Shown: one piece after another, positions 5,187 to 25,602 of the stretch | Layout of the letters: every line of letters begins with the position of its first letter | Numbering within the stretch: position 1 is the stretch's first letter | NCBI RefSeq assembly: GCF_014337925.2 | Contig: NZ_CP143423.1 | Coordinates: 1,208,501 to 1,272,500, forward strand | Source: Roseobacter fucihabitans | GTDB lineage: Bacteria; Pseudomonadota; Alphaproteobacteria; Rhodobacterales; Rhodobacteraceae | Direction: 5' to 3' | Length of the DNA: 64,000 nucleotides | The notes under the pieces: model-generated | What the model was told of the DNA's origin: nothing | The model's database searches: none | The model's input: the letters and a program-made list of their open reading frames with translations, nothing else | Program-made: the position numbers and the translations under genes

Positions 5187-5552
5187 TTGGACGAGATGCT
5201 ACGGGAATACCTACCCATCCTTGTTTTTCTGGCCGTCGCCATTGGCCTCGGCCTGGTGCTGATTATGGCCGCCGTGATCCTGGCGGTGCGCAATCCGGAT
5301 CCCGAAAAAGTCTCCGCCTATGAATGTGGGTTCAACGCCTTTGACGACGCGCGGATGAAATTCGACGTGCGGTTCTATCTGGTGTCGATCCTCTTCATCA
5401 TCTTTGATCTGGAAATCGCCTTCCTCTTTCCCTGGGCCGTCGCCTTTCAGGACATCTCTATGACCGCTTTCTGGTCGATGATGGTGTTTCTCGGGGTTTT
5501 GACCATCGGGTTCGCCTATGAATGGAAAAAAGGAGCGCTGGAATGGCAGTAG
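5187..5552 (+). CDS. nuoA: NADH-quinone oxidoreductase subunit A
   Basis: NuoA is a 121-residue membrane subunit at the hinge of complex I. Three transmembrane helices are visible (about 8-34, 63-87, 93-112), with the conserved YECGF loop around Cys47 between the first two. The chosen start is the TTG at 5187, because aaggag lies 7 bases upstream; the ATG three codons later is too far from it. The last 10 bases overlap nuoB, which indicates translational coupling. It is the first gene of the 14-gene operon. Confidence 0.95.
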
Positions 5553-6076
5553 CCGCCGGAGCCAACACCGCGGATTTCGACCGCGATGTCGCCACGCAGG
5601 ATTTGAACCGCGAATTGCAGGACAAGGGTTTTCTGCTGACCTCAACAGAGGACATCATCAACTGGGCGCGCACCGGCTCGCTGCATTGGATGACCTTCGG
5701 GCTGGCCTGCTGTGCGGTCGAAATGATGCATACCGCCATGCCGCGCTATGACATGGAACGTTTCGGCACCGCCCCGCGCGCCTCGCCGCGCCAATCGGAT
5801 CTGATGATCGTGGCCGGAACCCTGACCAACAAGATGGCGCCGGCCCTGCGCAAGGTTTACGATCAGATGCCCGAACCGCGTTATGTGATCTCCATGGGCT
5901 CCTGCGCCAATGGCGGCGGCTATTACCACTACAGCTATTCTGTGGTGCGCGGCTGTGATCGCATCGTGCCGGTGGACGTCTATGTGCCCGGCTGCCCGCC
6001 CACGGCAGAGGCGCTGCTCTATGGCATCATGCAACTGCAACGCAAAATTCGCCGCACCGGGACTATTGTGCGCTAA
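5543..6076 (+). CDS. nuoB: NADH-quinone oxidoreductase subunit B
   Basis: NuoB is the 177-residue peripheral subunit that holds cluster N2, the last iron-sulfur centre before quinone. The ligands are visible as the tandem Cys56-Cys57 ([11 protein letters not shown]), Cys121 (MGSCANGGG) and Cys151 ([11 protein letters not shown]). The ATG at 5543 has GGAG upstream and lies inside the nuoA end. A 109-residue orphan gene instead of nuoC follows 15 bases after the stop. Confidence 0.97.
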
Positions 6077-6091
6077 GGAAAGTCCTGTAAA

Positions 6092-6421
6092 ATGAACAAG
6101 CCGAAGTTTAATTCCATTGGAGTTCAGTATCAAATACTTCGTAAAGGTGCTGAGCGGCCGGAGGATTGGGGCTCGTCTCATGGATTCGAGGTTGATAGCT
6201 TGGCGGACCTCGCTGGGCTACCAAACGTAGGTGATTTTGTGTCTCTGAACGCTCTGAAATCGAGCGAGGGTGGCGACAGTTATCATGGTAAGGTTAGGTC
6301 AAAGCTATTTCGCCAGTTCACGATAATGGATGAGAGTGGTTTGACCGCAGAGTTGGGTATTGGAGTTACCGTTGTGGTCGAAGAGACGGACGATGACTGG
6401 GGCAAGTTGATCAAGGAATGA
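6092..6421 (+). CDS. Orphan protein inserted between nuoB and nuoC
   Basis: I do not recognise this 109-residue protein. It has no signal peptide or membrane segment. The N-terminal half contains FEVDSLADLAGLPNVGDFVS, and the C-terminal half, with YHGKVRSKLFRQFTIMDES and GIGVTVVVEETDDDW, looks beta-rich and ends acidic. An aaggaa site precedes the ATG. Codon choice is visibly more AT-rich than nuoB or nuoC, which suggests it was acquired. It is co-directional with the nuo genes, so it is very probably co-transcribed. No role in complex I can be claimed. Confidence 0.75.
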   Translation: MNKPKFNSIGVQYQILRKGAERPEDWGSSHGFEVDSLADLAGLPNVGDFVSLNALKSSEGGDSYHGKVRSKLFRQFTIMDESGLTAELGIGVTVVVEETDDDWGKLIKE

Positions 6422-22602: not shown

Positions 22603-24143
22603 TGGACAACCTTCTGTCGATTGTGACCTTCATCCCCGCGATGGCGGCCTTGATCCTTGCGGTTTTCCTGCGTGGAAATGATGAGGCGGCCAACCGCAAC
22701 GCCAAATGGCTGGCGCTGGCGGCGACTTCCATGACCTTCCTCGTGTCGCTGTTCATCCTGGCCGGGTTTGACCCCAATGATACGGGTTTCCAGTTTGTGG
22801 AACAGGCACCTTGGCTCTTGGGCCTGCAATACAAGATGGGCGTGGACGGTATTTCCGTGCTCTTCGTCATGCTGACGACCTTCATGATGCCACTGGTGAT
22901 CGCGGCCTCCTGGAACGTGGAAAAGCGGGTCAAGGAATATATGATCGCCTTCCTGCTGCTGGAAACGCTGATGCTTGGCGTGTTCATGGCGCTCGATCTG
23001 GTGCTGTTCTATCTATTCTTTGAGGCCGGTCTGATCCCGATGTTCCTGATCATCGGGATATGGGGCGGGGCGAACCGCATCTATGCGAGCTTCAAATTCT
23101 TCCTCTACACTTTCCTCGGCTCGGTGCTGATGCTGGTGGCAATGGTGGGCATGTTCTCCGACGCGGGCACCACGGATATCGAAGTGCTGCTGAACCACCA
23201 ATTCGCCTTTGAGACCTTCTCCATCGCGGGCGTGACCGTCGTGGGCGGCTTGCAAACCCTGATGTTCCTGGCCTTTTTCGCCAGCTTCGCGGTCAAAATG
23301 CCGATGTGGCCGGTGCATACATGGCTGCCCGATGCCCACGTGCAGGCCCCGACCGCGGGGTCGGTCGTGCTGGCCGCGATCTTGCTGAAATTGGGGGGTT
23401 ACGGCTTCATCCGCTTTTCCCTGCCGATGTTCCCGGTGGCGGCGGAAATCTGGTCGCCGATGATCCTGTGGCTCTCCGCGATTGCGATTGTCTATACCTC
23501 GCTGGTGGCGCTGGTGCAGGAAGATATGAAAAAACTCATCGCCTATTCCTCCGTCGCCCACATGGGCTTTGTGACCATGGGCATTTTTGCCGCCAATCAA
23601 CAGGGTCTGGACGGCGCGATTTTCCAGATGATCAGCCACGGGTTCATTTCCGGCGCGCTCTTCCTCTGCGTCGGCGTGATTTATGACCGGATGCACACCC
23701 GCGATATTGACGCCTACGGGGGCCTCGTGAACCGGATGCCGGCCTATGCGCTGATCTTCATGCTGTTTACCATGGCCAATGTCGGTCTGCCGGGCACCTC
23801 AGGGTTTGTCGGCGAATTCCTGACGCTGATGGCGGTTTTCCAGGTCAACACATGGGTGGCGGCTGTGGCAACGACGGGCGTGATCTTCTCTGCGGCCTAC
23901 GCGCTCTGGCTCTATCGCCGGGTGGTCATGGGCGATTTGATCAAGGAAAGCCTGCGCTCGATCACCGACATGACCCCGCGCGAGCGCTGGATATTTGCGC
24001 CGCTCGTGGTAATGACGTTGTTGCTTGGCGTTTATCCGGCGCTGGTTCTGGACATCACCGGACCCGCCGTTGCGGCGCTGGTCGGGAATTACGATACGGC
24101 GCTGGCCGCGGCTGAGGCCGCCTCCCAGTTGGCTGCGAATTAA
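22602..24143 (+). CDS. nuoM: NADH-quinone oxidoreductase subunit M
   Basis: NuoM is the 513-residue ND4-type antiporter-like subunit that pumps protons. Typical segments are [20 protein letters not shown] with its conserved Glu, [20 protein letters not shown] and [18 protein letters not shown]. About fourteen helices are predicted by hydrophobicity. The start overlaps the nuoL stop by one base (TGATG), and nuoN follows 13 bases after the stop. Confidence 0.98.
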
Positions 24144-24156
24144 AGGACGTAACACT

Positions 24157-25602
24157 ATGGTATCCGCTGATTTGACACTCGTGCTGCCGGAGATCCTGTT
24201 GGCGGTTTACGCCATGGTGATGCTGCTGGTCGCTGTTTACACGTCAAAGGACGGGCTGGCCTCGACCATTTTGTGGATGACGGCGGCGGTCATGGCAGCC
24301 CTTGGCGTTTGGATCATGACAACGGGCGAGGGTGCGGCAACCGCCTTCAACGGCATGCTGATGCTGGACGGTTTCGCGCGCTTTGCCAAGGTCACGATCC
24401 TGCTCTCGGCGGCCGCCGTACTGATCATGTCCGAAGGCTATATGAAATCGCGCGGCCTGCTGCGGTTCGAATATCCCTTGCTGGTTGCGCTCAGCGTGGT
24501 TGGCATGATGGTCATGGTCTCGGCCAATGACCTGATGGCGCTTTATATGGGGCTGGAACTGCAATCTCTGGCGCTTTATGTGGTCGCCTCTTTGCGCCGC
24601 GATTCGGTGAAGTCGACCGAAGCGGGCCTGAAATATTTTGTGCTTGGTGCTTTATCCTCCGGTCTGCTGCTTTACGGTGCCTCGCTGGTTTACGGATACG
24701 CAGGCACAACGCTCTTCTCCGGCATTATCGAAACTGCGCAGCATGGGGATGTCTCGCTCGGCCTGCTCTTCGGTCTGGTTTTCCTGATCTCGGGCATGGC
24801 CTTCAAGGTCTCCGCCGTGCCGTTTCACATGTGGACACCGGACGTCTATGAGGGCTCGCCGACCCCGGTGACTGCCTTCTTCGCCACGGCCCCAAAGGTC
24901 GCGGCCATGGGGCTTTTCGCCCGCGTTCTGCATGACGCTTTCGGCAATGCGATCCAGGATTGGAGCCAGATCGTGGCGCTCCTGTCGGTGCTGTCGATGT
25001 TCCTTGGCGCGGTTGCAGCCATCGGCCAGACCAACATCAAACGTCTGATGGCGTTTTCGTCCATCGCTCATATGGGCTATGCGCTCATGGGGCTGGCCGC
25101 CGGTACCATGCTCGGCGTGCAGGCGATGCTGATCTATATGGCGATCTATGTAACCATGAATGTCGGGACATTTGCGTTCATTTTGATGATGGAAAAAGAC
25201 GGTCAGCCCGTTACGGATATCGCGGCGCTGAACAATTACGCCAAACGTGAGCCGGGCAAAGCGCTGGCCATGCTGGTGCTGCTCTTCAGCCTCGCGGGTG
25301 TGCCGCCAATGCTCGGCTTTTTCGGCAAGTTCTACGTGCTGCGCGCCGCCTATGAGGCCAATCTGGCCTGGCTCGCAATTGCAGGCGTGATCGCCTCGGT
25401 GATCGGTGCCTATTATTACCTGCGTATCGTATTCTACATGTATTTCGGCGACGAAAGCCAAGAGGGCCTAGATGCGGGTGGCAACACCACCGTGCTTTGG
25501 GGCTTCCTGATGGCATCGGCGGCAATCATGATGCTGGGCATCGTCAATATGTTCGGCGTGGAAAGCGCGGCGGCGGCGGCGGCGGCCACGTTGGTCAACT
25601 GA
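24157..25602 (+). CDS. nuoN: NADH-quinone oxidoreductase subunit N
   Basis: NuoN is the 481-residue ND2-type antiporter-like membrane subunit and the last nuo gene. It shows [20 protein letters not shown] with the conserved Glu, [40 protein letters not shown] and [18 protein letters not shown]. The ATG at 24157 is chosen because upstream in-frame sequence is antisense-type noise over nuoM. A poly-alanine stretch ends the protein. birA follows after 43 bases in the same direction. Confidence 0.98.

What the first reader, a model, noticed from the sequence alone, without database searches (positions are those of the whole stretch)
5187..25602. Complex I operon threaded with orphan genes at gene boundaries
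All 14 nuo genes are present, but sixteen other ORFs lie between them. Some belong to families usual in Rhodobacterales operons. Others (6092-6421, 7072-7427, 8644-9255, 18281-18463, 19972-20196) are unrecognised and several look AT-rich. Almost all start or stop within a few bases of the flanking nuo gene, often by ATGA/GTGA/TAATG overlap. Repeated insertion without breaking coupling is hard to explain by chance and suggests either accessory complex I factors or a mechanism that targets gene junctions.
Basis: partly seen in the sequence, partly recalled or inferred. Interest (0 to 1): 0.7.

Follow-up and report, generated by a model that had tools for sequence, protein, structure and literature searches.

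The report
Swappable gene slots between nuo genes
In this marine bacterium and its relatives the operon for respiratory complex I has gaps between its genes that hold different small genes from species to species, in some cases traded by recombination; what the small proteins do is unknown.

Summary
All 14 nuo genes (5187-25602) are interleaved with 15 other ORFs (I count 15, not 16). Nine belong to families seen in nuo operons of other genera. Six (6092, 7245, 8644, 16472, 18281, 19972) have foreign-looking codon use and, by tblastn, match none of 120 related nuo loci (16472 matches one). Profile searches tie 7245 and, weakly, 19972 to divergent families of the same junction; 6092 has relatives on plasmids and a viral contig.

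The window species is not odd. In 18 species of its genus, junctions D/E, H/I, J/K and K/L hold 6, 8, 7 and 4 unrelated filler families. The closest pair (94.6% nuo identity) shares its H/I filler but differs at C/D, D/E, K/L and in part at F/G. All 50 small families keep to one junction (shuffles 4.6). Two C/D cassettes are 96-98% identical between species whose nuo genes are 84-86% identical, in tracts ending at nuoD. So at least some turnover is homologous exchange through the nuo flanks; nothing that targets junctions was found. sucC-D-A behaves alike; seven of eight S10 junctions do not. Whether fillers serve complex I is untested.

The parts
5187..5552 (+). nuoA
   Evidence: PF00507
5522..6076 (+). 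nuoB, overlaps nuoA by 31 nt (junction of 150 nt or more in 3 of 111 loci)
   Evidence: translation; junction table
6092..6421 (+). insert in B/C junction; 109 aa, GC3 0.53; relatives on plasmids and a viral contig
   Evidence: phrog_12676 E 9.4e-17; viral contig 46%; plasmids 36-40%; own genome only among 394 family genomes in a joined query
6455..7072 (+). nuoC
   Evidence: PF00329
7072..7245 (+). conserved 57-aa membrane peptide of the C/D junction
   Evidence: in all 17 congeners fetched and a number of other genera
7245..7427 (+). variable single-helix peptide of the C/D junction (60 aa, GC3 0.41)
   Evidence: MWFE start shared with L014, L002, L004, L008, L010, tails differ; L014 at 1.5e-6
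7427..8647 (+). nuoD
   Evidence: PF00346
8644..9255 (+). insert in D/E junction; 203 aa, GC 0.433, GC3 0.35; no relative found
   Evidence: ORF span 0 of 2000 shuffles
9257..10294 (+). nuoE with C-terminal helix-hairpin-helix-like tail
   Evidence: PF01257; tail comparison
10364..11053 (+). common E/F accessory gene, tail like that of NuoE
11074..11322 (+). DUF5337, common E/F accessory gene
   Evidence: PF17272 E 1.2e-27; 111 loci
11335..12630 (+). nuoF
   Evidence: translation
12636..13043 (+). MAPEG-family gene, sporadic in F/G
   Evidence: PF01124; 8 of 120 related loci by tblastn
13040..13543 (+). DUF3291, F/G accessory gene
   Evidence: PF11695 E 1.1e-50; cluster in 53 of 121 loci
13548..13871 (+). 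common F/G accessory gene
13984..14388 (+). DUF5333, common F/G accessory gene
   Evidence: PF17267 E 7.7e-37; cluster in 102 loci
14460..16475 (+). nuoG
   Evidence: translation
16472..16855 (+). insert in G/H junction; lipoprotein-like 127 aa, GC3 0.54; patchy family
   Evidence: L006 only in the fetched set; next to nuoH in 4 of 7 further genomes
16852..17235 (+). common G/H accessory gene
17242..18279 (+). nuoH
   Evidence: translation
18281..18463 (+). insert in H/I junction; 60 aa, GTG start, GC3 0.54
   Evidence: no hit better than 0.035 outside its own genome in 295 family genomes; junction empty (1 nt) in 6 of 18 species
18460..18954 (+). nuoI
   Evidence: Fer4 domains
18951..19370 (+). 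CMD-domain gene, common I/J accessory gene
   Evidence: PF02627 E 1.6e-13; 106 loci
19367..19969 (+). nuoJ
   Evidence: translation
19972..20196 (+). insert in J/K junction; 74 aa, GTG start, GC3 0.45; probable member of a divergent J/K family
   Evidence: L036 J/K filler at 0.0037, then L005 and L115 through it
20193..20498 (+). nuoK
   Evidence: translation
20503..22602 (+). nuoL
   Evidence: translation
22602..24143 (+). nuoM
   Evidence: translation
24157..25602 (+). nuoN
   Evidence: translation

Best explanation
The nuo operon of this bacterial family carries a set of permissive junctions, chiefly C/D, D/E, F/G, H/I and J/K, that work as slots. A slot is empty or holds one or a few small genes, mostly coupled to the nuo genes on either side. 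New genes enter from a wider pool (one window insert has plasmid and phage-family relatives). Once in, a filler together with pieces of the flanking nuo genes can be passed between strains and species and replace the resident filler by homologous recombination, since the flanks are conserved. Selection removes inserts that uncouple translation of the nuo genes, so the survivors tend to start on the old ribosome-binding site and to bring a new one for the next gene. Most fillers are probably passengers of a steadily expressed operon, not parts of complex I. Shown: slot variability, slot fidelity of the small families, a few recent exchange tracts, coding nature of the longer fillers. Inferred: entry from the mobile gene pool in general, the carrier (gene transfer agent, transformation or phage), selection on coupling, and the passenger role.
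For: Unrelated fillers at one site: in 18 species D/E has 6 families, H/I 8 (empty in 6 species), J/K 7, K/L 4 (ORFs from 35 aa, so some of the shortest may be spurious). At least 10 changes at H/I and 9 at D/E and J/K on the species tree. L014 and L016, the closest pair, 94.6% identical in nuo genes, have unlike fillers at C/D and D/E with sharp edges, and differ at K/L and in the first F/G ORF. Slot fidelity: 56 of 59 families in two or more loci keep to one junction, 50 of 50 of the small ones against a shuffle mean of 4.6 and maximum of 10. Exchange: C/D of L006 and L017 98.1% over 375 nt against 83.7% for nuo; L001 and L016 96.3% over 534 nt against 85.5%; identity falls back at the start of nuoD. 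I/J of L009 and L016 (a common gene, not a filler) 94.7% against 85.3%, tract beginning inside nuoI. Coding: dN/dS 0.12-0.17 for c31, 0.19-0.33 for c21, 0.28-0.51 for c32. Pool: 6092 matches phrog_12676 at 9.4e-17 and plasmid genes at 36-40%. Genus fillers of 60 aa or more have lower GC than nuo, median -0.08, n=53. Family trait: H/I of 160 nt or more in 27 of 99 genera, 0 of 18 other families where it could be measured (Fisher 0.012).
Against: Only two clear recent transfers of fillers were seen (both C/D), plus a weaker one at H/I (L001/L004, 90.6% over 127 nt against 83.7%) and one of the common I/J gene; the rest could be older gain and loss. Excess identity alone is not proof: the conserved first 175 nt of C/D and the I/J gene exceed the nuo average in many pairs, by up to 12%; the two C/D cases stand out because the whole junction, filler included, is near identical. 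Over the whole family the fillers are not AT-rich (median +0.003, n=362). A plasmid or phage link was found clearly for one of the six inserts; tblastn of 6092 against 50,697 phage records gave nothing better than 0.1, and 8644 matched nothing. Slot fidelity would also follow from a function tied to complex I or from plain descent and loss. Short shared fillers show weak or no constraint: c36 0.78, c38 0.75, c37 1.44, c39 0.61; some c9 pairs reach 0.89. In 11 of 36 filled junctions of the genus no single ORF spans the gap.
Confidence: 0.6

Rival explanations
1. The fillers are fast-evolving accessory, assembly or regulatory factors of complex I, each tied to the neighbouring subunit, which is why they keep to one junction and are coupled.
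For: Slot fidelity; 16472 relatives next to nuoH in 4 of 7 genomes; constraint on the longer families; TM-like segments in 113 of 327 fillers of 60 aa or more.
Against: Fillers of one slot are unrelated in sequence and length (J/K 37-379 aa in the genus) and often absent; several are recognisable as unrelated enzymes (acyltransferase, MAPEG, methyltransferases, thioesterase, nuclease); 3 of 7 relatives of 16472 have no nuoG or nuoH within the fetched flanks and lie on other contigs than nuoH. Purified Paracoccus complex I gave core plus three known extra subunits, most other proteins judged contaminants (PMC8115037, passages).
Confidence: 0.22
2. A mobile element or recombinase targets gene junctions, for instance stop-start overlaps.
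For: Inserts sit exactly between stop and start, e.g. H/I in L008 is a bare ATG-to-TAA insert.
Against: Small families do not move between junctions; no recombinase recognised in the window inserts; only short imperfect repeats in two insert-bearing stretches, window 6000-9400 and 18200-20600; seven of the eight S10 junctions compared are not filled.
Confidence: 0.05
3. Local birth of genes: junction DNA or frame-shifted neighbour sequence becomes coding and drifts, so fillers look unrelated although they never moved.
For: C/D peptides share a short N-terminus with tails that differ wholly; very short fillers lack clear constraint; low codon adaptation; 274 of 335 ORF clusters are singletons.
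Against: Clean empty sites of 1 nt, fillers of over 150 aa with constraint, domain families, and 6092 with plasmid relatives.
Confidence: 0.1
4. Ordinary conserved accessory genes of the order, over-read as orphans.
For: True of eight of the 15 extra ORFs and partly of MAPEG.
Against: The six are not found by tblastn in the 17 congeners (16472 in one; profile relatives for 7245 and 19972) and have foreign codon use.
Confidence: 0.04

Closest known systems
ORFan insertion into native operons (life cycle of operons, Price, Arkin and Alm 2006; recalled, paper not held)
   Same: Lineage-specific genes placed inside old operons without destroying them.
   Different: Here many junctions of one operon turn over within a genus, small families keep to one junction, and some exchange tracts are visible.
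Mosaic operons by in-situ gene displacement (Omelchenko and colleagues 2003; recalled; the id I tried is not held)
   Same: Replacement inside an operon that stays intact.
   Different: That concerns replacement of an operon's own gene by a distant orthologue; here unrelated extra genes change in the gaps.
URFs of the Paracoccus denitrificans and Rhodobacter capsulatus nuo operons (1990s; recalled)
   Same: Extra reading frames between nuo genes in the same order of bacteria.
   Different: Those were single-species descriptions as I recall them; the variability between species is what is added here.
Hotspots of gene turnover in pangenomes and integron cassette arrays (recalled)
   Same: Fixed place, changing cargo.
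   Different: The slot is a few nucleotides between coupled genes of a housekeeping operon; no integrase or attachment site was found.

Membership tests
ORFan insertion into operons | gene of narrow distribution inside an otherwise conserved operon | tested here: met
ORFan insertion into operons | insert co-transcribed with the operon | not testable with these tools
   no transcript data; promoter-like and terminator-like sites are at shuffle level
Accessory subunits of complex I | present in the purified complex | not testable with these tools
   related data only: PMC8115037 passages
Accessory subunits of complex I | retained together with the core subunits across species | tested here: not met
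   five of the six in 0 of 120 related loci by tblastn, 16472 in 1 of 120 (a few loci partial); distant profile relatives for two
Integron-like or transposon-borne cassettes | recombinase and recognisable ends or target duplication | tested here: not met
   (window inserts only; repeats sought in two stretches)
Homologous-recombination hotspot with changing cargo | tracts of excess identity covering the cargo and part of the flanks | tested here: met
   L006/L017 and L001/L016 at C/D; L009/L016 at I/J for a common gene; not shown for D/E, J/K or K/L
Prophage or plasmid cargo | relatives on phages or plasmids | tested here: inconclusive
   6092: profile, plasmids and a viral contig but no phage record by tblastn; 8644 none; 16472 weak (phrog_3716 2.3e-4) with relatives on alphaproteobacterial replicons

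The most novel reading that the evidence does not exclude
Permissive junctions of core energy operons in this family are a standing, integrase-free cassette system: fixed expression slots whose unrelated small genes are swapped between species by homologous recombination through the flanking housekeeping genes, perhaps carried by gene transfer agents, giving newly acquired genes immediate coupled expression.
Probability: 0.35. Interest if true: 0.8.

Novelty: new variant of a known kind. Interest (0 to 1): 0.62.

Why it matters
If right, the least likely place in a genome, the tightly coupled gaps of an operon central to respiration, is a regular landing and trading site for new genes. That gives a concrete route by which orphan genes gain expression, makes the origin of ORFans testable site by site (empty and filled sites can be lined up to the base), and warns against guessing a complex I function for a gene merely because it lies in the nuo operon.

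Tried and rejected
Rejected or set low: junction-targeting element. Anti-phage defence cargo: one weak PADLOC match in 32 fillers (4TM, 0.0064). RNA elements: none at gathering threshold in 5000-26000. Structure: single-sequence models of 6092 and 8644 were too poor to use (pLDDT 41 and 43), so no fold search was run. A scan of named genomes with 8644 found no relative (it only reaches close relatives). The joined query missed the three short inserts even in their own genome, so two were searched alone; 7245 was not searched genome-wide, and the loose first look may have missed relatives of the others. The J/K profile hit 4 of 295 genomes: the window genome, the two members it was built from that lie in that set, and one weak hit (1.1e-5) on a contig other than nuoH's; it is therefore no independent support for slot fidelity. 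Of the three families not confined to one junction, cluster 0 joins F/G and G/H by one link at 3.4e-5, clusters 6 and 7 have 2 and 1 members elsewhere. Literature: ten searches; no listed title or abstract start describes slot-wise variability of the nuo operon, but the listings are capped at 10 to 15 rows and most subscription papers are not in that library.

Rows dropped: of 191 family genomes with NuoD (listing itself cut) I fetched 103, chosen by hand for room on the contig; of 18 other congeners 17 (G205 is cut off inside nuoD). L019 and L091 are short, L093 and L099 lack many junctions, and others lack values at the ends. For family scans one ORF per cluster of at least 75 aa was taken: 108 of 170 selected, plus four window inserts. 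In one search pairs with fewer than 40 codons or pS over 0.7 were dropped (the 16472 pair among them); that script then stopped on a format error and its last test was redone. In one search the figure 0 of 20 for other families was entered by hand, where two of the 20 gaps were misjudged; one search repeats it with 18. The suc comparison has 9 of 18 species. S10 cells are missing in several loci.
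Full report
What is there. The 14 nuo genes lie in order on the + strand, 5187-25602, with 15 further ORFs between them. Pfam names some extra ORFs: DUF5337, DUF5333, DUF3291, MAPEG and a CMD-domain protein; none of the six unusual ones has a Pfam family above cut-off.

Two kinds of extra gene. I fetched the nuo region of 17 congeners and of 103 other genera and located nuo genes and the 15 extra ORFs by tblastn. Eight extra ORFs (7072, 10364, 11074, 13040, 13548, 13984, 16852, 18951) recur in other genera, most of them widely, and MAPEG in 8 of 120. 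Five (6092, 7245, 8644, 18281, 19972) matched none of the 120 loci and 16472 matched one. These six have GC3 of 0.35-0.54 and codon adaptation to the nuo genes of 0.33-0.49; the nuo genes have 0.65-0.80 and 0.65-0.82.

Not all six are orphans. Iterated profile searches among all junction ORFs put 7245 with small one-helix peptides of the C/D junction: L014 at 1.5e-6 in the first round, and the same MWFE start is seen in L002, L004, L008 and L010. Later rounds pull in fused C/D frames and are less trustworthy. 19972 matches the J/K filler of L036 at 0.0037, and through it those of L005 and L115, so its place rests on one weak link. 16472 has relatives in seven other genomes of 394: four next to nuoH, three without nuoG or nuoH in the fetched flanks and on other contigs than nuoH. 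6092 matches phrog_12676 at 9.4e-17, a viral contig at 46% and plasmid genes at 36-40%, while tblastn against phage records gave nothing better than 0.1. Neighbours on those elements include an integrase on one plasmid and a methyltransferase and HEPN-like nuclease on another, and by my own reading of the translations phage P2-like portal and terminase genes on the viral contig (not tested). 8644 and 18281 have no relative in what was searched.

The junctions are hypervariable in the whole genus. Across 18 species D/E holds 6 unrelated filler families, H/I 8, J/K 7, K/L 4 and F/G 15; A/B and B/C hold two each, G/H one, and E/F, I/J, L/M and M/N none, some M/N values being missing (ORFs down to 35 aa, and two J/K fillers of 37 and 39 aa are doubtful). 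H/I is empty with a single base between stop and start in 6 of 18. On a tree of concatenated nuo genes the H/I state changes at least 10 times and D/E and J/K at least 9. Over all 121 loci, 106 carry at least one filler of 50 aa or more outside the nine largest clusters, and 78 do in B/C, D/E, H/I, J/K or K/L. Against its sister species L003 the window differs at B/C, C/D, D/E, G/H, H/I, I/J, J/K and K/L.

Fillers are mostly real genes. One ORF spans at least 90% of the junction in 82 of 143 junctions of 150-700 nt (25 of 36 in the genus), against 6.3% (3.2%) of dinucleotide shuffles and 7.7% on the minus strand. Shared longer families show dN/dS of 0.12-0.17 (c31), 0.19-0.33 (c21) and 0.28-0.51 (c32); c9 ranges from 0.16 to 0.89; four short families show 0.61-1.44 and may not be constrained genes; nuo genes in four pairs show 0.003-0.095.

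How they turn over. Of 59 families seen in two or more loci, 56 keep to one junction; of the 50 small ones all do, against a shuffle mean of 4.6. The largest exception, cluster 0, is two families joined by one weak link. Relatedness of the species inflates these numbers, but there is also no cross-junction DNA match in the genus at E 1e-10. C/D cassettes of L006 and L017, and of L001 and L016, are 98.1% and 96.3% identical while the nuo genes of those pairs are 83.7% and 85.5%; the excess stops at the start of nuoD and, in the first pair, reaches into nuoC. The conserved first part of C/D exceeds the nuo average in many pairs, so it is the near identity of the whole junction that marks these two. 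A similar tract covers the end of nuoI and most of the I/J genes in L009 and L016. Conversely L014 and L016, 94.6% identical in nuo, share H/I but have unlike C/D and D/E fillers with sharp edges. Homologous replacement through the flanks accounts for both. The carrier is inferred; [quoted passage not shown] I did not test for them in this genome.

Controls. In the S10 operon of the same genus seven of the eight junctions from rpsJ to rplP stay within -4 to 21 nt wherever measured, and only rplW-rplB is a variable break of 0.9-2.7 kb (16 of 18 loci measured), with a terminator-like run beside it in the window genome by my reading. In the suc operon sucC-sucD and sucD-sucA hold varied genes, several of them coupled, and sucA-sucB none, in 9 species; mdh-sucC is variable too. 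So nuo is not alone, but not every operon does this. In 20 other alphaproteobacterial families, one genome each, two H/I gaps could not be judged; of the other 18 none reaches 160 nt, and no I/J gap of the 20 exceeds 194 nt. In this family H/I reaches 160 in 27 of 99 genera (Fisher 0.012).

What the fillers do. Their families are mixed: acyltransferase, MAPEG, methyltransferases, thioesterase, nuclease, EF-hand, and many with none. TM-like segments occur in 113 of 327 fillers of 60 aa or more and 21 of 53 in the genus. This looks more like varied cargo than a set of complex I parts. Purified Paracoccus complex I showed the core and three supernumerary subunits, and most further proteins were judged contaminants, though two small core subunits were missed (PMC8115037, passages). 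I put the passenger reading first, with a complex I role as the main rival.

Confidence. The variability, the slot fidelity of small families and the two C/D exchange tracts are firm. How much of the turnover is exchange, the source of the fillers in general, the carrier, and the lack of a complex I role are inference.

Noticed in passing
window 9257-10294 and 10364-11053: The helix-hairpin-helix-like tail of NuoE is 91% identical (58 aa) to the tail of the next gene here, 86% in sister L003 and 88% in L008, but 38-55% in the other 15 species of the genus, which suggests gene conversion inside the operon. NCBIfam models of L21, S2 and a phasin match the same tail.
   Followed up: partly
L121-L138, rplW-rplB: The S10 operon of the genus is broken between rplW and rplB by 0.9-2.7 kb of variable DNA; in the window genome it holds a 271-aa ORF not found in the other 15 loci that cover the junction.
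   Followed up: partly
L139-L147, sucC-sucD-sucA: The suc operon carries varied genes like those of nuo in 9 species, while sucA-sucB is not filled in any of the 9.
   Followed up: partly
L011, L012, L013 and 33 other loci, C/D junction: A gene of about 300-330 aa, sulfotransferase-like by my reading (recalled, not tested), lies between nuoC and nuoD in 36 loci.
   Followed up: no
L093, F/G junction: A 9.2 kb stretch with many ORFs lies between nuoF and nuoG in one genus.
   Followed up: no
L001, L003-L006, L009, L010, L014-L017, I/J junction: Two tandem genes of the CMD-domain family instead of one between nuoI and nuoJ in 11 of 18 species of the genus.
   Followed up: no
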